Below, in pieces: positions 4,771-12,097 of a stretch of 64,000 bases of DNA. A program made the translations under genes and the position numbers. The DNA comes from Candidatus Saccharimonadota bacterium (GTDB lineage: Bacteria; Patescibacteriota; Saccharimonadia; Saccharimonadales; Saccharimonadaceae), in contig QJZZ01000001.1 in the NCBI GenBank assembly GCA_003246575.1, positions 219,978 to 283,977 of the forward strand, given 5' to 3'. Within the stretch, counting starts at the first letter, position 1, and each line of letters opens with the position of its first letter. The notes beneath the pieces are model-generated. The model searched no databases, had not been told where the DNA came from, and saw only the letters and a list, made by a program, of their open reading frames with translations.

Positions 4771-5223
4771 ATGAAGCGCATATTCAATCGGCAGACGATT
4801 CGCCGAACGTATTATCACATTCGCCACAACTACCTGACACTCAACAACGGGGTCATTGCTCTGGCTGCAATCGTTGCGATTGGCTGGGCGTGGGGCGCGG
4901 TGTCGATGATGCAGCGCAACTACACATTGCAGCGCAATCTCGATGCCAAGCAACGTGAACTCTTGCTGGCCGAGCTCCAAGTACAAACACTCGAGTATCA
5001 GGGGCGCTACTATGAAAGTGCCGAATACCAAGAACTATCTGCGCGCGAAAACCTCGGGCTCGTCAATCCGGGTGAAAAAGTACTGATCTTGCCAGAAAAC
5101 AGTGACGCCGCCAAGCAGGCGGACGATACATCGATCATCGGACAAACGCAGACGACCGATCAGCCAAGCAACCTCGAGCAATGGATGGATTTCTTCCTCG
5201 GCAAAAATGTCCCGAGCTCGTAG
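4771..5223 (+). CDS. Septum formation initiator (FtsB/DivIC-like) protein
   Basis: A 150 aa single-pass membrane protein. After a basic N-terminus there is one membrane segment (about residues 26-46), then a coiled coil (about 50-85) and a GLVNPGEKVLIL stretch typical of the DivIC/FtsB C-terminal region. The family bridges FtsL and FtsQ in the divisome. The last 40 residues are polar and probably disordered. TACAAT sits 11 nt before the ATG, so any leader is very short. Confidence 0.8.
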   Translation: MKRIFNRQTIRRTYYHIRHNYLTLNNGVIALAAIVAIGWAWGAVSMMQRNYTLQRNLDAKQRELLLAELQVQTLEYQGRYYESAEYQELSARENLGLVNPGEKVLILPENSDAAKQADDTSIIGQTQTTDQPSNLEQWMDFFLGKNVPSS

Positions 5224-5299
5224 CTCTTGATAAAATCACCTACCCCTGCTACAATACATATCTGTATCGCGTCCAGCGCGAAGCACATTACATCTTTAT

Positions 5300-5414
<115 letters not shown>

Positions 5415-5443
5415 CAACGTGTCGAGGATTTTCACCTCTGACT

Positions 5444-5466
5444 AGTTTTGCCCGTTGGGCAAAACT
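5444..5466. repeat. Inverted repeat inside the fMet-side element
   Basis: AGTTTTGCCC-GTT-GGGCAAAACT, perfect 10 bp arms. A related hairpin with TTTTTGCC/GGCAAAAA lies in the element at 11936-11954. Confidence 0.7.
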
Positions 5467-5634
5467 GTCGCAGGTATCGCTTCGCTCCTCCGTTTGTTCA
5501 TAAAAATATGTAAACACATTTTAATTTCACTGCACTCCGCCAAATCCTGCCCCTGCAACCATAGAAAAGCATATGTTGATTGATAAGATGAGCATCACTC
5601 GATGCAGCAAGATACCTATGTTGGCGATATGTGC

Positions 5635-5640
5635 TATAAT
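5635..5640 (+). promoter_or_regulatory. Extended -10 box of the three-gene cassette
   Basis: TGCTATAAT with its TATAAT at 5635-5640, 10 nt before the ATG at 5651. No clear -35 is visible. Confidence 0.55.
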
Positions 5641-5650
5641 TATAGTCAAT

Positions 5651-6376
5651 ATGGCGAACGAACTATCACTGTCAAAGCCGCCAGTCGTAGACGCAATAGT
5701 GGAATTGCGTTTTGACTCTGAAATGCCCAGTCAGGTTATCGCGGGAATTTTATTCGATAAACTTACGAAGTATGGCTACGGATCATTTGAGGAAATTGAG
5801 GTTGCTCGGCTTCCTAAAGAGATAAAGGATAGTGAGGCGAGCCTCAGGTACGCTGCTCACTACAGGTTTAGTAGCGATAAATTCTTTGTGTCGATTAGCT
5901 CTCGTGTAATATCTGTCGTATGCAAATGTGTGGGTGAATCAACATATCAAGGATGGGATAATTATAAACATGAGATTGAAAAAGTTCTCAGTGAGCTTAG
6001 GAGCCTAAGTGCCGTTGGTGGATTTTCTAGAGTAGGGGTAAGGTTTGTTAATCTTTTTACTAACTCAGATATCCTGGAGCGTATCAATATTGCCATTCAA
6101 GCCCCTGATGTTGACATGATTACAGATGAACGAATAGTGGGATTTGTTTACAAAAACGGCACCATGAACACCAGGATAAATTTTGCCACAAAAGCCAGTT
6201 TATCTTTTGTAGATGGCGGGTCTATGGACGGCGCCGTTCTAGACGTAGATAGCTATACCGAACAAGAGGATATATCTTTTGATCGGGCGCTAGGGCTCAT
6301 TGAAGACGGTCACAAATTTACAGAAGCTGCGTTTGTTAAAATTGTAAAAAAAGAATTTATGGATGAACTAAGGTAG
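5651..6376 (+). CDS. TIGR04255-family protein
   Basis: A 241 aa soluble protein. The opening LSLSKPPVVDAIVELRF, a central YQGWDNYKHEIEKVL and RVGVRFVNLF match the pattern I know for TIGR04255, a sporadically distributed family of unknown function. The start at 5651 is set by the TATAAT just upstream; longer in-frame starts would overlap the promoter. The stop overlaps the next GTG start by 1 nt (TAGTG), so translation is coupled. Base composition is visibly more AT-rich than neighbouring genes, suggesting transfer. The scattered family and tRNA-side position suit a defence or mobile cassette, which is inference. Confidence 0.72.
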   Translation: MANELSLSKPPVVDAIVELRFDSEMPSQVIAGILFDKLTKYGYGSFEEIEVARLPKEIKDSEASLRYAAHYRFSSDKFFVSISSRVISVVCKCVGESTYQGWDNYKHEIEKVLSELRSLSAVGGFSRVGVRFVNLFTNSDILERINIAIQAPDVDMITDERIVGFVYKNGTMNTRINFATKASLSFVDGGSMDGAVLDVDSYTEQEDISFDRALGLIEDGHKFTEAAFVKIVKKEFMDELR

Positions 6377-6684
6377 TGTCGATAGTAAAAGCATCCATCG
6401 GCGGAATTACAATGACAGCGTCTCTCGGGGCGGCTACTTTGACTTTTCCGGGTACTTTTGGTCTGCAGGAGACTCAATATGTATTACCTCCAGTTACCCC
6501 ATACTCTAATGTGTTGTACACAACAGATTTTGAAGATTATAAACAGCCTGAAGAGGCCTCTTTGGATGGCCTTGCCAAACTGGCCCATATTAATGATGTT
6601 GTTCGCAAAGTAACAAGCGAATCCGTGCCGCTTACTGAGCGTCAGCATGCAATACTGACGGACCGTTTATTCGATTTTCTATAG
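6376..6684 (+). CDS. Small hypothetical protein of the cassette
   Basis: A 102 aa protein starting with GTG overlapping the previous stop. The first 35 residues are rich in small and hydrophobic residues (GGITMTASLGAATLTFPGTFG) and could be a signal-like or membrane-associated segment. The C-terminal half is polar and helical. I do not recognise a domain. Coupling to the gene before and a 9 nt gap to the gene after place it in a single operon. Confidence 0.65.
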   Translation: MSIVKASIGGITMTASLGAATLTFPGTFGLQETQYVLPPVTPYSNVLYTTDFEDYKQPEEASLDGLAKLAHINDVVRKVTSESVPLTERQHAILTDRLFDFL

Positions 6685-6693
6685 GTAACCATA

Positions 6694-7317
6694 ATGATAG
6701 ATGAAGATTTGAAAAAATTTCTTCCCACTTTTCTGCCAAATGGAGAGCAGGATGAGCTATTTTACGGCCTTGAGCAGCTTAGGAATAATCGGCTTTCAAC
6801 TATAAAAAATTTCTACACGCATAATGATACTATCGATACAATACTAGAGCAAGGTGACGGGATTGATGGTCTACCTATATTTAACCTTCCTGAACTGCAT
6901 TCGAAATATGGCAAAGGCTTTGTTATATCTAACACATGTGATGTAAGTATCGATAACACTAGGGTTGTACCGATGAGATTGTTGTATGCTCCTGTCTTGA
7001 ACCTGGAGAAGTATGAAAATGCATTACGAGAAAGCGGGGATTACAGTGAGGATTGGGGCAGGGCTGTTAGGGAGCAGCAAATAACACACCTTTTCTACTT
7101 GCCCGTTGGTTCGGGACTGTCCTATGAAGCCATAGTCCCACTGGATCAAGTCAACTCGATAGCCCCGAGTTACTTATTAGAGCAAGACTTGTCTGTAAAT
7201 AAAGTATTCAGATTATCACTAATTGCGTGGTATGTTTTGCTTATAAAACTAACTCATCATTTCGCAAGAACCACCAACGAGCTTATTGCAAGAAAATCCT
7301 CGACAGCCTCCACATAA
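6694..7317 (+). CDS. SNTCDV-motif hypothetical protein
   Basis: A 207 aa protein. Residues 76-86 read FVISNTCDVSI, and RVVPMRLLYAPVL follows. A buried SxTCD[VI] motif of this type occurs in a loose group of uncharacterised proteins found in phage and genomic islands; this is recollection, not a search. One hydrophobic helix near residues 176-190 may be a membrane or core segment. It is the third gene of the AT-rich cassette and probably works with the TIGR04255-like protein. Confidence 0.65.
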   Translation: MIDEDLKKFLPTFLPNGEQDELFYGLEQLRNNRLSTIKNFYTHNDTIDTILEQGDGIDGLPIFNLPELHSKYGKGFVISNTCDVSIDNTRVVPMRLLYAPVLNLEKYENALRESGDYSEDWGRAVREQQITHLFYLPVGSGLSYEAIVPLDQVNSIAPSYLLEQDLSVNKVFRLSLIAWYVLLIKLTHHFARTTNELIARKSSTAST

Positions 7318-7364
7318 AAATGCCATGTGTATATCATGGTGTTGGAAGGTTGCCCAGGTTTTTT

Positions 7365-8735
7365 CTACACGAGCTTACTAGCAGCCGAACGAATCGCCTC
7401 TGACCAAGTCAAAAAGGCGTGCGGCATTGTGGCGAGGTCGCGAGCGGTGAGGTTCTGGTTGATAGCCAGGGCGATTTCGTGAATCATCTCGCCTGCGCCT
7501 GGGGCAACGATAGTGCCGCCGAGCAGGACGCCTTTTTTGTCGGCAATCAGTTTGACGAAGCCAACGCTGTGGTCGCTGGTGTTTGCGCGGGCGACTTGCG
7601 AGAGTGGCACGAGCGCTTGGTTGATCGATAGATCACGCTTGAGGCAGTCGTCGTCAGTTAGGCCGACAGATGCGATAGTCGGATTGGTGTGAACGATACG
7701 TGGAATTGGTGCAGCATCTGGCACTTTGATGGCTTTGTTGAGCAAGCTATGGGCAACGACGCGACCGTGCAGGATAGCGGCTTGCGTCGAGCACGTACTA
7801 TTGACGGCAGCACCACCAGCGAAGATGTGCTGGGCGGAGGTGCGCAGGTGATCATCGACATCGATGCCGGCCTGTGTGTATTCGACGTGGGCGTTTTCGA
7901 GGCCGAGGTCGGTGACAGGCGAGCGATCGAGGAAGAGGATCTCATCGACTTGGACAGACTTGGTTGTTTCGCCACGAGTGAAGCCGACGCGCACGCCGAG
8001 GCCTTTTGGCTCGACGCTCGAAAGTTGCGTGTGCGTGAGGAAATTGACACCTTGGGTATTGGCGAGATGTTGCTCGAGGAGTTCGCTGACAGAACTGTCG
8101 TAGTCGGGCAATATGCGAGCGGCGCGTTCAGAGACATAGACCTTAGTCCCGAAAGCGGCAAACATCTGTGCATATTCGATCGCTTCAGCGTCGCTGCCGA
8201 CGATGAAGAGGCTGCGTGGGATGCGTTTGCTCTCGAGGATGGTGCGAGGCGTCTGGTACGAGATGGTCTCGATGCCATAAACATCAGGCTGAGTGAAGTC
8301 TGCGCCGGTGGCGATGAAGAATTGCTCAGCGGTCAGGTGCTTGCGGTTGACGGTGATTTCGTGTGGTGTCAGGAAGTGAGCAGCGCCATCGTAGGTATCG
8401 ATATTCGCACGCTTGTAATAGTCGCGGTTATTGGCGTTGCCGCTACGTTTGACAGCCTTTTCTTTCCAGGCGAGAACAGTCGGGAAGTTGTAGCCGAGCA
8501 TGTTACTGCGGATGCCGAAGCGTGTACCGGCGCGGGCGTCATTGTAGAGCGCAGCCACGTGGAGGATCGCCTTGGTCGGCACGTCGCCGTAGTTTGGAGA
8601 CTCGCCGCCGAATACGCCAGATTCGACCAATGCAACCTTTTTGCCGGCACGAGCAACTGTCAGTGCGGCCGTAGATCCGGCAGCGCCACTGCCGATTACG
8701 ATGAGGTCATAGTCGAATTTTTGTTTTTTTGCCAT
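7365..8735 (-). CDS. Pyridine nucleotide-disulfide oxidoreductase-fold flavoprotein lacking the redox disulfide
   Basis: A 456 aa homologue of dihydrolipoamide dehydrogenase/mercuric reductase. The FAD-binding GSGAAG motif is at residues 15-20, an NAD(P)-binding region lies near 175, and the C-terminal dimerisation domain is complete. The usual GGTCxNxGCxPTK motif reads GGESPNYGDVPTK (43-55), so both redox cysteines are replaced (Ser46, Asp51). At the C-terminus HAHPTLSE reads HAFLTWSE, so the catalytic His becomes Phe441 while Glu446 stays. It cannot work as a classical disulfide reductase. A flavin-dependent NAD(P)H oxidase, quinone reductase or sensor role is possible. Last gene of a three-gene operon. 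Confidence 0.85.
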   Translation of the reverse strand: MAKKQKFDYDLIVIGSGAAGSTAALTVARAGKKVALVESGVFGGESPNYGDVPTKAILHVAALYNDARAGTRFGIRSNMLGYNFPTVLAWKEKAVKRSGNANNRDYYKRANIDTYDGAAHFLTPHEITVNRKHLTAEQFFIATGADFTQPDVYGIETISYQTPRTILESKRIPRSLFIVGSDAEAIEYAQMFAAFGTKVYVSERAARILPDYDSSVSELLEQHLANTQGVNFLTHTQLSSVEPKGLGVRVGFTRGETTKSVQVDEILFLDRSPVTDLGLENAHVEYTQAGIDVDDHLRTSAQHIFAGGAAVNSTCSTQAAILHGRVVAHSLLNKAIKVPDAAPIPRIVHTNPTIASVGLTDDDCLKRDLSINQALVPLSQVARANTSDHSVGFVKLIADKKGVLLGGTIVAPGAGEMIHEIALAINQNLTARDLATMPHAFLTWSEAIRSAASKLV

Positions 8736-8752
8736 CGATTTCTCCTTTTTGT

Positions 8753-9034
8753 TTAGAGCATGTTGTGGTGATGTTTGTATAAATACGCGGCTTCCGGACT
8801 CACGATGGTGAGCGATTGGGTGGCGATGCGGCGGATGTCTTCACTGGTAACTTCTGGACGGGTACGGAGCCATAGTTCAACGGCGCGCGTGACGTGTTCG
8901 GCGGTATCCTCGGCGAGACCTCCGGCGAGATTGACGCTGAGGCAGGCGGCCTCGATGCTATCGTACAGTCGCTTCGGATCGAATGGTTCTGTGTGCGGCG
9001 AGGCGTCGTGAAGGGCAATTACCTGTGATGTCAT
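8753..9034 (-). CDS. Stand-alone ATP-cone domain protein
   Basis: A 93 aa protein. FDPKRLYDSIEAACLSVNL, VTSEDIRRIATQSL and AAYLYKHH follow the order of an ATP-cone: a basic beta start, helix with SIxxA, then an I/V-rich helix ending in YxxY/H. ATP-cones bind ATP/dATP as regulatory modules of ribonucleotide reductase and NrdR. Here the domain is nearly the whole protein. It overlaps the upstream membrane gene by 4 nt (ATGA) and is followed 17 nt later by the flavoprotein, suggesting a nucleotide-sensing partner for one of them. Confidence 0.65.
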   Translation of the reverse strand: MTSQVIALHDASPHTEPFDPKRLYDSIEAACLSVNLAGGLAEDTAEHVTRAVELWLRTRPEVTSEDIRRIATQSLTIVSPEAAYLYKHHHNML

Positions 9035-9750
9035 GCACCGCCTCCGATCATGAAGTGCACGATGATGCGTTCGACATAGATGTAGACGCCGAGGACGATA
9101 AGTGCTCCGCCGCCAGCGAATTGCAGGAAGTGTTTGTTCTGTTCGCGCCAGCGCTGGATGCGAGCGATGCTTTCGCCGGCGCTGACCTGAGTGGCGATGA
9201 TCGTGAGAGGTAGCGTTGCGACGACGACATACATCAGGAGTCCGGCGAGCTGCAAGGAGAGTGGCAAATCGACAAGTAGCAATGCAGCGACGAACGTCAG
9301 GGCGATTGTGAAGATGACTTCGCCAATCACACTCGTGAGACCGAGGCCGAATGCTTCGGGCGTGATTGTGGTTGCACGGGCGCGCTTGGTGAGATAGTCG
9401 GCCATAGGGCGAGGGATCCAGAGAATCGTGCCAGCGCTACCGCGGCGATAATAAAACAGCCATACGGCGAGGCCGACGCCAACCATTAGACCACTCGATG
9501 CGCTCCATAGGATAGTAGGTATTTCGGCGAAGAGGCTTGCCAGGACAAAGGAGAGGAAGGCGAGGCTCAGCGCAGTCATCGTGATGACGCCGAGGCTGAA
9601 GCTCGAGGTCAGCTGGCTGACACGCGCGAGCGCGGTCTTTTTGCCGAGTGCATGACCGCTCATGACGGTCACCATACTGACGCTCAACTGAAAACTCGCC
9701 TGGATGATGGCGGCGGCTGCGAGGAGGATAAATGTCTCGAGTGTTGTCAT
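9031..9750 (-). CDS. Polytopic membrane protein of the ATP-cone/flavoprotein operon
   Basis: A 239 aa integral membrane protein with about six hydrophobic helices and a short basic loop near residues 118-130. The arrangement of two three-helix halves recalls LysE or DsbD/CcdA-type transporters, but no conserved cysteine pair is visible, so the resemblance is only structural. It is the first gene of the operon; TATAAT lies near 9780 on the reverse strand, giving a leader of about 25 nt. Function unknown. Confidence 0.7.
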   Translation of the reverse strand: MTTLETFILLAAAAIIQASFQLSVSMVTVMSGHALGKKTALARVSQLTSSFSLGVITMTALSLAFLSFVLASLFAEIPTILWSASSGLMVGVGLAVWLFYYRRGSAGTILWIPRPMADYLTKRARATTITPEAFGLGLTSVIGEVIFTIALTFVAALLLVDLPLSLQLAGLLMYVVVATLPLTIIATQVSAGESIARIQRWREQNKHFLQFAGGGALIVLGVYIYVERIIVHFMIGGGA

Positions 9751-9903
9751 GTGTATTTTGCTTGTGTTATATGCAGAATTATAGCATAAACACTACGAAA
9801 ACGTGAAATCTGTTGCTAAAGTGGTCGCTAGGGTATTGCTTTTTTATAAAGTTTATGCTAATATAAGTACATCACAAAATAAAACAAAAAGGAAAACAAG
9901 TCT

Positions 9904-10047
9904 ATGAACGAAATGACATCCGGCCTATCGGAAGTACTTGCTGATGGTCTGGAATTTGGATGGATGCGTCAACGTACGCATGAGGAGCTCGAAAGTTTCA
10001 TCAATCGCCGCCATGCCAGTCTGCCGGATGATATCGACATTGAATAG
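9904..10047 (+). CDS. Small 47 aa protein
   Basis: An ORF of 47 codons beginning MNEMTSGLSEVLADG and ending in DDIDIE. It is preceded by AAAAAGGAAAA about 8 nt before the ATG and a TAATAT -10-like box near 9858, and followed by a terminator (10073-10100). The complete gene layout supports it as real. The product is acidic and helical, with no recognised domain. Confidence 0.6.
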   Translation: MNEMTSGLSEVLADGLEFGWMRQRTHEELESFINRRHASLPDDIDIE

Positions 10048-10072
10048 GAATTGAAATTGCCACAAGTACAAA

Positions 10073-10100
10073 AAACTACCCGTCATATGGCGGGTAGTTT
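10073..10100 (+). terminator. Terminator of the 47 aa gene
   Basis: AAACTACCCG/CGGGTAGTTT arms with an 8 nt loop and flanking A and T runs. Confidence 0.8.
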
Positions 10101-10146
10101 CGTTGTGGGTTGGGGGTGTGGAGTATCGGAAAATATTCCAATGCAA

Positions 10147-10183
10147 GTCACAAAGCGCGGGGGATGGTAGTGCGCTTCGTGAC
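10147..10183. repeat. Inverted repeat in intergenic space
   Basis: GTCACAAAGCGC and GCGCTTCGTGAC pair over 12 positions with one mismatch around a 13 nt loop. It lies between two terminators (10073-10100 and 10241-10280), with no gene visible on either strand. Function unknown. Confidence 0.5.
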
Positions 10184-10240
10184 ACCCACCCATAGTAATA
10201 GGCGATTCTGAAAGAAAGCTGAAAGTGTCTAAAAATACTT

Positions 10241-10280
10241 GCCGCCGAGCACCCCCTCTAGTGAGAGAGCGCTCGGCGGC
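10241..10280 (-). terminator. Strong terminator of the gene at 10282
   Basis: GCCGCCGAGC/GCTCGGCGGC arms followed on the reverse strand by AAGTATTTTT. Confidence 0.8.
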
Positions 10281-10281
10281 G

Positions 10282-10788
10282 TTAGGCACCGTGCCGGCCG
10301 ATGAGGGCTCTCGTGAACAAATACTGAGCAAACTCAACTGGTCCGTGCGTCCATGCCTGAACGTTGTCGTCCGAGGCATCGTACGGCACGAAGTCGAGCA
10401 AGTTGTCATACTGACGGTCGAGCTTCATGCCGCTCCGCCGTAGCTTGCGCCAGTAGACGAGACGTGTCACGCGCAGGTGGTGCGGGTGGCCAACCAGAAT
10501 GAGCCGATCAACCTCCATCTGCTGGAGGTAGTCAAGCGCGCGGGTCAGTACCTGGGCGGTGCTCAGGTAGTGCGTCGGGCTATACCGTTCGCTGAGGGTG
10601 TGGCAAGGTCGGTCGGTCACAGCGGTTTCCCACTGCGAGACGATCGATACAAGGTTGCCTGCCTCGTGTTCGGTTTTTGCGACCATCGACGTTATGCCGA
10701 TGATTTCTTGGTTGGCGATGCCGGATGACAGGGTGCTTCCACCTGCCTGCCCGAACGCCAACGCGACGATTCCAACGGTTTCGTGCAT
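10282..10788 (-). CDS. Hypothetical protein, YdcF/DUF218-like
   Basis: A 168 aa soluble protein. ALDYLQQMEVDRLILVGHPH and HLRVTRLVYWRKL resemble the core of DUF218/YdcF proteins, in which a Rossmann-like strand is followed by a conserved His/Arg region. The match is weak and the N-terminal acidic residues of that family are not obvious. GGAG lies 6 nt before the ATG on the reverse strand and a strong terminator follows the stop, so it is a complete single-gene unit. Confidence 0.6.
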   Translation of the reverse strand: MHETVGIVALAFGQAGGSTLSSGIANQEIIGITSMVAKTEHEAGNLVSIVSQWETAVTDRPCHTLSERYSPTHYLSTAQVLTRALDYLQQMEVDRLILVGHPHHLRVTRLVYWRKLRRSGMKLDRQYDNLLDFVPYDASDDNVQAWTHGPVEFAQYLFTRALIGRHGA

Positions 10789-10857
10789 CTCTGCTCCAAG
10801 GGTAGGGTGGATGGATTTGTATATTATACTATATTTTGCGAAAAATGAAATTCAGCA

Positions 10858-11388
10858 CTATGCGTACGCATCCGTTGCGACAGCTTCCCATTTCGGCAAA
10901 GCAACTTCGAACATGAACGTGTAGATCTCTCGTACATTTGCGGGCAGTGTCGTCTCTGGTAGCTGTAGCAATTCGTCGAGAGTATACCACCGAATATCAC
11001 TAGATTCTCCTTCGCCAACGCTGCCTGCAGGATCTTCGTCTGTGACAAGACCGTACGCAGTATCGCTGTGGAGGTGTTCGTCCGAAAAATGATGGGTATT
11101 AAGTGCGAGTGGATACGGGTGAAGTTTGACGCGTCCTAGGCGCTTTATGCGTTCCCTGGGCTGCAAGATGCGTAATTGGTCGATGCTGTATCCTGATTCC
11201 TCGGTGAGCTCATGGGCTATGGCCTGCCACAAGTCCTCATCGAGCTCAACATGCCCGCCTATAGGAAGAAGCCTGCCAAGCTTTTTGTGCATGTGCAGGA
11301 ACGCTTTTGGCTTCGTTGTGTCGGTCCTGATGATAAAGCCAGTGACGGTGTGGTCGTGCTGTCCGGGTTCGGTATGAATATGTGCCAT
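10858..11388 (-). CDS. Nudix hydrolase
   Basis: A 176 aa Nudix protein. The box GGHVELDEDLWQAIAHELTE continues ESGY (residues about 44-66) and fits Gx5Ex7xEUxEExGU, with His in place of the usual Arg of REUxEE. This variant still keeps the metal-binding glutamates. C-terminal DIRWYTLDELLQLPE is the usual Nudix ending. It is unlike the Nudix protein at 4197 outside the box. Substrate unknown. Confidence 0.85.
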   Translation of the reverse strand: MAHIHTEPGQHDHTVTGFIIRTDTTKPKAFLHMHKKLGRLLPIGGHVELDEDLWQAIAHELTEESGYSIDQLRILQPRERIKRLGRVKLHPYPLALNTHHFSDEHLHSDTAYGLVTDEDPAGSVGEGESSDIRWYTLDELLQLPETTLPANVREIYTFMFEVALPKWEAVATDAYA

Positions 11389-11451
11389 GGGTTCAGTATA
11401 GCACTGGAGAGGACGGCAGTACCGCGCAGCCGCAGCCCGAGGCGAATAGGT

Positions 11452-11733
11452 CTACTTCTTTGTCTTGGTCTTGGTTGATTTTTTTGTTTCAACGAGAAGC
11501 TGCACGAGGCCTGTGATTATGAACGGAATGCCTACGAGTGAAGCGAGCTGTATGGTTACGACAGATGATGCGCCGAGCACGTAGAGCTGCTCATCGTTGA
11601 AGCTTGTTTCGGCGACCGAAAATACGCCTGAATCAATCGCCCATTGTGCGATTGGATAAGCGAAAAACCAAAATAACAGTATAAAAACACCTGTGATTAC
11701 AAACCATGCACCTGTTTGCTGTCGTTCTGTCAT
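11452..11733 (-). CDS. Small two-helix membrane protein
   Basis: A 93 aa protein with two hydrophobic segments (about residues 9-30 and 58-80) and a Lys/Thr-rich C-terminal tail (KKSTKTKTKK). The ATG at 11733 is chosen because AAAGGAG lies 6 nt upstream; a longer in-frame start would read into the displaced tRNA terminator. No family recognised. Confidence 0.65.
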   Translation of the reverse strand: MTERQQTGAWFVITGVFILLFWFFAYPIAQWAIDSGVFSVAETSFNDEQLYVLGASSVVTIQLASLVGIPFIITGLVQLLVETKKSTKTKTKK

Positions 11734-11791
11734 CGTAACTCCTTTTATCATTATGAGCTCATAGTAGCAACTTCCTGATTGTCCAACAATA

Positions 11792-11832
11792 CCAAAGCAA
11801 AACTCCCACATAGCGTGGGAGTTTTGCTTTGG
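11792..11832. terminator. Terminator attached to the displaced tRNA 3' end
   Basis: Perfect 18 bp arms (11792-11809 and 11815-11832) with a 5 nt loop. On the reverse strand it begins with the CCA of the tRNA 3' end copy, just as the functional tRNA terminators do. Confidence 0.8.
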
Positions 11833-11875
11833 TAGCACCGACAAGGATATCGGCTAAAGCCTCTTCCGCTCATTC

Positions 11876-11908
11876 GTAAACAAAAATAGCTTTGCTGCTT
11901 TTGTTTAC
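11876..11908. repeat. Inverted repeat inside the Met-side element
   Basis: GTAAACAAAA at 11876-11885 and TTTTGTTTAC at 11899-11908, perfect 10 bp arms. Confidence 0.6.
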
Positions 11909-11935
11909 TTCATTCGCTACACGAACATGTGACTA

Positions 11936-11954
11936 TTTTTGCCTTTGGCAAAAA
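11936..11954. repeat. Hairpin shared with the fMet-side element
   Basis: TTTTTGCC-TTT-GGCAAAAA within GACTA...AGTC. The fMet-side element has GACTAGTTTTGCCC followed by GGGCAAAACTGTC at the matching distance from its tRNA. Confidence 0.6.
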
Positions 11955-11980
11955 GTCCCAAGTTCACCCAATGACTGTAA

Positions 11981-12023
11981 CCAAATAAAAAATCCAACCT
12001 TTAGAGTTGGATTTTTTATTTGG
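11981..12023. terminator. CCA-anchored 18 bp terminator of elongator tRNA-Met
   Basis: Arms 11981-11998 and 12006-12023 pair over 18 bp with a 7 nt loop. The outer end is the tRNA CCA (TGG at 12021-12023 on the plus strand). Confidence 0.85.
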
Positions 12024-12097
12024 TAGCACCGACAAGGATTGAACTTGTGACCTCAGGCTTATGAGTCCTGCGCTCTAACCAGCTGAGCTACGGTGCC
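12021..12097 (-). tRNA. Elongator tRNA-Met (CAU)
   Basis: Acceptor GGCACCG/CGGTGCT (last pair G-T), D arm GCTC/GAGC, loop CTCATAA with anticodon CAU, encoded CCA. The 5' half and GAGGTCACAAG resemble E. coli elongator Met. The anticodon stem CAGGA/GCCTG has an A31-G39 mismatch next to the loop. Confidence 0.88.

What the first reader, a model, noticed from the sequence alone, without database searches (positions are those of the whole stretch)
11792..12097. 191 bp element at tRNA-Met with a displaced tRNA 3' end and terminator
The tRNA 3' end is repeated exactly 191 bp away. The distal copy still carries a full CCA-anchored terminator, while the intact tRNA has a different terminator. That is the footprint of insertion into the tRNA 3' end. 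The element is too small to code for anything and has internal inverted repeats, so it would be a miniature, non-autonomous integrative element or a scar of one.
Basis: partly seen in the sequence, partly recalled or inferred. Interest (0 to 1): 0.72.

Follow-up and report, generated by a model that had tools for sequence, protein, structure and literature searches.

The report
Tiny insertion family at tRNA ends
Behind many tRNA genes of Saccharibacteria sit ~180-190 bp gene-free insertions that leave the tRNA intact, carry copies of that tRNA's own end plus a conserved folded segment, and pile up by repeated insertion; this window holds two of them.

Summary
The 191-bp stretch 3' of tRNA-Met is one copy of a dispersed family: 99 of 394 genomes sampled from its GTDB family, 31 of 61 genera, up to 8 or more copies per genome. 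Of 96 copies read, 85 follow a same-strand tRNA, of 19 isoacceptors. Order on the tRNA strand: intact tRNA; new terminator; inverted copy of tRNA positions ~46-76; hairpin; direct copy of ~46-57; conserved ~70-nt insert with a covarying hairpin; displaced tRNA 3' half (58-76); old terminator. The tRNA-like parts match the host tRNA, not others (0 of 10,000 permutations). Insertion is shown: the window's distal terminator directly follows the intact tRNA in two relatives, and an orthologous tRNA-Ser locus has one unit more in one species than in two others. So it is neither a fixed host RNA gene nor a one-off scar. Closest known kind: T-loop islands of large serine recombinases (PMC3146451). 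The enzyme that moves these elements, and how they come to match each tRNA, remain unproven. The initiator tRNA-Met (5300-5377) carries a second copy with the insert reversed.

The parts
12021..12097 (-). intact tRNA-Met(CAT), elongator type
   Evidence: ARAGORN and Rfam RF00005
11980..12024 (-). T1: new terminator hairpin of the intact tRNA, stem includes CCA
   Evidence: 19-bp perfect inverted repeat
11955..11983 (-). INVERT: inverted copy of the tRNA 3' part (rc of about 46-76; best kept over 46-57)
11934..11954 (-). H1 hairpin TTTTTGCC..GGCAAAAA
   Evidence: inverted repeat I15
11923..11933 (-). DIRECT: direct copy of tRNA positions about 46-57
   Evidence: repeat D3
11849..11922 (-). Insert I: conserved family segment with two hairpins (H2 at 11876-11908, H3 at 11852-11861)
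11830..11848 (-). displaced tRNA 3' half (58-76, with CCA)
   Evidence: exact repeat of the tRNA 3' end
11790..11834 (-). T0: previous terminator of the tRNA, displaced
   Evidence: 20-bp perfect inverted repeat; found directly at tRNA-Met in G096 and G113
5300..5377 (+). initiator tRNA-Met, host of the second element
5378..5561 (+). second element: T1 5378-5414, INVERT 5415-5442, H1 5443-5466, DIRECT 5467-5475, insert I in reversed orientation about 5476-5542, displaced 3' half 5543-5561
   Evidence: R1 match on the opposite strand

Best explanation
The stretch is a gene-free mini-element that inserted at the T-loop (between tRNA positions about 57 and 58) of tRNA-Met. Each new unit enters directly behind the tRNA, supplies a working 3' half and a new terminator, and pushes the old 3' half with its terminator outward, so units can stand in series. 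Shown: insertion, T-loop junction, restored tRNA, series of units, covarying fold, match of the internal copies to the host tRNA. Inferred: movement in trans by a site-specific recombinase that uses the T-arm as its chromosomal site; large serine recombinases, which sit in full-size islands at the same tRNA ends in these bacteria, are the first candidate. Insert I would be the element's own recombination site, perhaps acting as a folded single strand. The inverted and direct T-arm copies are read as parts of tRNA-specific lineages that pass between species at the same tRNA, while insert I is exchanged more freely.
For: Dispersed family at tRNA ends. Empty sites. Tandem units. Junction in the T-loop and boundaries at about 46, 57/58 and 76. 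Copies match the host tRNA. Covarying insert. Insert up to 90% identical between elements at different tRNAs while terminators and H1 are unrelated; terminators follow tRNA type across genera. Reversed insert in the second window element. Serine-recombinase islands at tRNA-Gly here and tRNA-Pro in G208. Precedent: T-loop islands of a large serine recombinase with serial 20-bp repeats (PMC3146451).
Against: No excision product, no enzyme shown. Serine recombinases barely separate element-bearing from element-free genomes (26 of 29 against 20 of 28); Y1 transposases separate them better. The inverted T-arm copy is not part of known serine-recombinase islands and is not explained by this mechanism. 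At one orthologous tRNA-Ser locus a unit stayed alignable where flanks did not, which could mean constraint beyond mobility.
Confidence: 0.5

Rival explanations
1. Spread by ordinary homologous recombination: DNA of another species carrying tRNA-T1-...-displaced 3' half recombines at the tRNA (about 77 bp) and at the 19-bp 3' half, so a unit is added without a dedicated recombinase.
For: Terminators follow tRNA type across genera; the new terminator in L199 resembles that of a tRNA-Ser(GGA) element of another genus (L167); modules are mixed among tRNA-Pro copies.
Against: Does not explain insert I at 90% identity between different tRNAs, its reversal, or its presence alone in a tRNA-Gln T-loop (L203).
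Confidence: 0.2
2. Mobilised by IS200-like Y1 (REP-associated tyrosine transposase-like) enzymes acting on the folded single strand of insert I.
For: Y1 genes (PF01797) in 13 of 24 element-bearing and 0 of 18 element-free genomes (p = 1e-4). Y1 genes lie within 400 bp of a tRNA in 6 of 20 cases, 5% expected. GNAG and GGAG precede the two hairpins of insert I, as a tetranucleotide precedes REP hairpins (own knowledge).
Against: Y1 genes are flanked by their own perfect palindromes, unlike insert I; R1 finds an element in only 4 of 20 Y1 loci, none at the gene's ends. 11 of 24 bearing genomes show no Y1 gene. Genus membership confounds the correlation.
Confidence: 0.15
3. A conserved non-coding RNA or regulatory structure of the host that sits behind tRNA genes.
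For: Strong covariation; a unit alignable between two species at tRNA-Ser(GGA) while intergenic flanks are not.
Against: Sporadic presence, different tRNAs in different genomes, tandem units, presence/absence at orthologous loci, reversed insert, position behind a terminator. No Rfam family but tRNA reaches its gathering score.
Confidence: 0.1

Closest known systems
Dehalococcoides ssrA (tmRNA) genomic islands with the large serine recombinase DsiB (PMC3146451)
   Same: [quoted passage not shown] restored gene and displaced 3' end; serial repeats behind the gene; small members without an integrase
   Different: There kilobase islands at one gene; here 177-191 bp, no genes, at least 19 tRNA isoacceptors, inverted T-arm copy and a covarying insert
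tRNA-gene genomic islands as mapped by Islander (PMC4383910)
   Same: Regenerated tRNA plus displaced fragment mark the two ends
   Different: Islander islands peak at 13.6 and 39.9 kb and are catalysed by tyrosine integrases; these elements hold no gene
REP/REPIN sequences with RAYT (Y1) transposases
   Same: Small hairpin-bearing dispersed repeats; Y1 genes occur in the bearing genomes
   Different: Sit only behind tRNAs; the Y1 genes here carry other palindromes
Integron attC sites and cassettes
   Same: Structure kept while sequence varies; small recombining units (own knowledge)
   Different: No attC boxes recognised by eye; most genomes hold a single PF00589 recombinase whether or not they bear elements

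Membership tests
tRNA-site integrative island | intact target gene at one end and displaced 3' fragment at the other | tested here: met
   repeated in the family
tRNA-site integrative island | empty site in relatives | tested here: met
tRNA-site integrative island | integrase gene inside the element | tested here: not met
   177-191 bp, no gene; hence filed only as working like one
tRNA-site integrative island | excision as a circle | not testable with these tools
   needs DNA from living cells
T-loop serine-recombinase islands (DsiB type) | crossover in the T-loop | tested here: met
   identity to the tRNA breaks at about 57/58
T-loop serine-recombinase islands (DsiB type) | moved by a large serine recombinase | tested here: inconclusive
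   islands with such enzymes at the same tRNA ends, but weak presence correlation
REP/REPIN-RAYT | Y1 gene flanked by the same hairpins | tested here: not met
   other palindromes at the Y1 genes
MITE of a DNA transposon | terminal inverted repeats shared with an autonomous transposon | tested here: inconclusive
   no terminal inverted repeats recognised by eye in insert I; no autonomous copy found in the loci read, search limited
Known RNA family (Rfam 15) | score above a family's gathering threshold | tested here: not met
   only tRNA

The most novel reading that the evidence does not exclude
Each insertion copies its target: only insert I and the hairpin caps arrive, and the inverted and direct T-arm copies and the new tRNA 3' half are made from the host tRNA during insertion, by snap-back or rolling-circle synthesis around a dumbbell of tRNA positions 46-76 (the observed order equals a little over one turn of such a dumbbell). 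That would be a mobile element that tailors itself to any tRNA and so can enter essential tRNA genes without harm.
Probability: 0.2. Interest if true: 0.9.

Novelty: new variant of a known kind. Interest (0 to 1): 0.7.

Why it matters
It shows that tRNA-end integration is not limited to kilobase islands: gene-free units under 200 bp use the same T-loop site across at least 19 tRNA isoacceptors in small, streamlined genomes, and do so repeatedly. Their copies of the host tRNA and the covarying insert give a concrete, testable case of how an element can target many essential genes without breaking them. It also warns that inverted and direct tRNA fragments near tRNAs in Saccharibacteria can be mistaken for genes, regulatory RNAs or island ends.

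Tried and rejected
One-off scar: rejected, dispersed family. Host ncRNA fixed in all relatives: rejected by presence/absence. Phage or plasmid origin: the exact right-end motif is absent from IMG/VR, and the element has no match in the phage or plasmid collections. Known RNA: none. Tyrosine recombinase (PF00589) or reverse transcriptase (PF00078) as mobiliser: present or absent irrespective of elements. Serine recombinase presence discriminates only weakly. Y1 transposase: correlated, but its genes carry other palindromes. Readings as a tRNA primer-binding site, a bridge RNA or an attC site were considered from the anatomy and dropped: the inverted copy is complementary to the direct copy rather than arranged as guides, and no matching enzyme stood out. 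The exact motif hit in Cycloclasticus (L043) and the R1 hit in G720 (L253) have no tRNA nearby and look like chance. Literature searches found no description of this family; only open-licence papers could be searched.

Full report
Check of the observation. The tRNA-Met lies at 12021-12097 on the minus strand. Its 3' end recurs exactly (21 nt) 191 bp downstream on the tRNA strand, and both copies run into perfect CCA-anchored hairpins with different cores. The strand folds with z = -12 against shuffles. Within the element the tRNA T-arm appears twice more: an inverted copy (11955-11966) and a direct copy (11923-11933) on either side of a hairpin.

A family, not a single site. The interior (134 bp) finds similar sequence in 41 of 151 genomes of the GTDB family, and nearly all fetched copies lie just 3' of a same-strand tRNA, of many isoacceptors. 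Public records found with an exact motif are Saccharibacteria/Patescibacteria or unnamed bacterial MAGs; the one exception, Cycloclasticus L043, has no tRNA nearby and is a chance match. A covariance model (R1) finds the element in 99 of 394 family genomes and 31 of 61 genera, up to 8 or more copies per genome, and in 41 of 198 genomes sampled from the order. In a phylum sample of 380, the hits outside the order are one at a tRNA-Ser in the same class (L254) and one without a tRNA that looks like chance (L253). Of 96 copies read, 85 have a same-strand tRNA upstream, 82 of them within about 50 nt, of 19 isoacceptors; most of the other 11 have Ns, a broken or displaced tRNA end, or a tRNA pseudogene.

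Anatomy. On the tRNA strand: tRNA 1-76 | T1 terminator | rc(76..~46) | H1 hairpin | ~46-57 | insert I | 58-76 | T0 terminator. Position profiles show where identity to the host tRNA starts and stops: inverted and direct copies end near position 46, and the split is at 57/58, in the T-loop; the inverted copy is much better kept over 46-57 than over 58-76. The host tRNA fits the inverted, direct and displaced copies far better than other tRNAs do (1.9/12, 2.7/12 and 2.9/15 mismatches; best of 10,000 permutations 3.6, 4.0 and 5.8). The copies follow sequence differences within one isoacceptor too, as in tRNA-Tyr.

Insert I. About 70 nt: GGTTCG-GYGNAG, a hairpin with paired segments separated by conserved G/A internal loops, then GCGGARGAG, a second hairpin and GAT. 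The pairs covary strongly (94% of cells paired; covariation 0.690 against 0.284 in shuffles, 0 of 500, and far above slid controls). That alignment was fitted to the model, which favours the structure, but RNAalifold predicted it on the first 21 sequences. The G/A loops would be C/T on the other strand, which suggests (inference) that the tRNA-sense strand is the functional fold.

Insertion is shown. (a) The window's distal terminator, as pattern CTACCAAAGNAAAACTCCCA..GGGAGTTTTNCTTTGG, occurs in three of 394 genomes: here, displaced by 191 bp, and in G096 and G113, where it directly follows the intact tRNA-Met; the reversed control pattern found none. In those two relatives another element follows that terminator, so they are empty for this unit, not for the family. 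(b) At a tRNA-Ser(GGA) locus with the same kind of downstream gene, L199 has an extra 177-bp unit between the tRNA and the terminator that directly follows the tRNA in L210 and L211. (c) Units stand in series at one tRNA (L174, L206). (d) In L203 the insert sits directly in the T-loop of a tRNA-Gln pseudogene. (e) A same-genus relative has the tRNA-Met without an element and with another terminator (L006).

Modules. Insert I is up to 90% identical between elements at different tRNAs in different genomes whose terminators and H1 are unrelated, while terminators and H1 follow tRNA type across genera (0 of 500 permutations; insert I shows the same tendency far more weakly). H1 windows may include a few T-arm letters, so the terminator result is the cleaner one. 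The second element in this window, at the initiator tRNA-Met (5300-5377), has its insert reversed. Insert I therefore has a history partly independent of the rest.

What might move it. Full islands use the same tRNA ends: a 10.5-kb island at tRNA-Gly of this genome with a 564-aa large serine recombinase (PF00239, PF07508) whose last codons run antisense through the tRNA, and a 5.8-kb island at tRNA-Pro of G208 with a similar gene. In both, the island stands between the tRNA and an older element-like structure. [quoted passage not shown] However, serine recombinases are found in 26 of 29 element-bearing and 20 of 28 element-free genomes. IS200-like Y1 genes correlate better (13 of 24 against 0 of 18, p = 1e-4) and lie near tRNAs more often than expected, but carry their own palindromes, and genus membership confounds the comparison. 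Both are candidates; neither is shown.

Conclusion. A real family of very small T-loop insertions, for which no description was found in the held literature. It works like tRNA-site integrative elements but fails one defining feature of them (its own integrase), so it is filed as a new variant: gene-free mini-elements. The open points are the enzyme and the origin of the tRNA-matched inverted copy.

Noticed in passing
window 5378-5561: A second element of the family at the initiator tRNA-Met, with its insert in reversed orientation.
   Followed up: yes
L103:2600-13161 (own genome C1:426600-437161): 10.5-kb island at tRNA-Gly(GCC) with a large serine recombinase whose last codons run antisense through the tRNA gene; an element-like structure with another insert at its far end.
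   Followed up: partly
L016, L031, L052, L267: Another T-loop insert family with right end like TCGTGGGGTCGCGGAACGTGACCGA|ATCC next to displaced tRNA ends; inverted T-arm copies occur there too.
   Followed up: no
L084 (tRNA-Glu), L268 (tRNA-Glu), L285 (tRNA-Gly, tRNA-Phe): Displaced tRNA ends or inverted T-arm copies behind the terminator with inserts unrelated to insert I, so the inverted copy is not tied to this insert.
   Followed up: partly
L266-L285: IS200-like Y1 transposase genes of about 200 aa, most flanked by perfect palindromes (such as TTAGAAGGTCCGTCCTTCTAA), often beside tRNA genes; L273 has one inside the inverted copy at tRNA-Met.
   Followed up: partly
window 5573-7317: Genes directly behind the second element; the two tested (267 and 207 aa) match no Pfam family. 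Possible cargo or insertion.
   Followed up: partly
window 4771-12097 and L133 (G101:C5:62744-68270): The neighbourhood of the two tRNA-Met genes looks partly shared with another genus; the initiator tRNA-Met appears flipped relative to its neighbours, and both tRNAs carry elements in both genomes.
   Followed up: no
L203: tRNA-Gln pseudogene split in its T-loop by insert I alone.
   Followed up: partly
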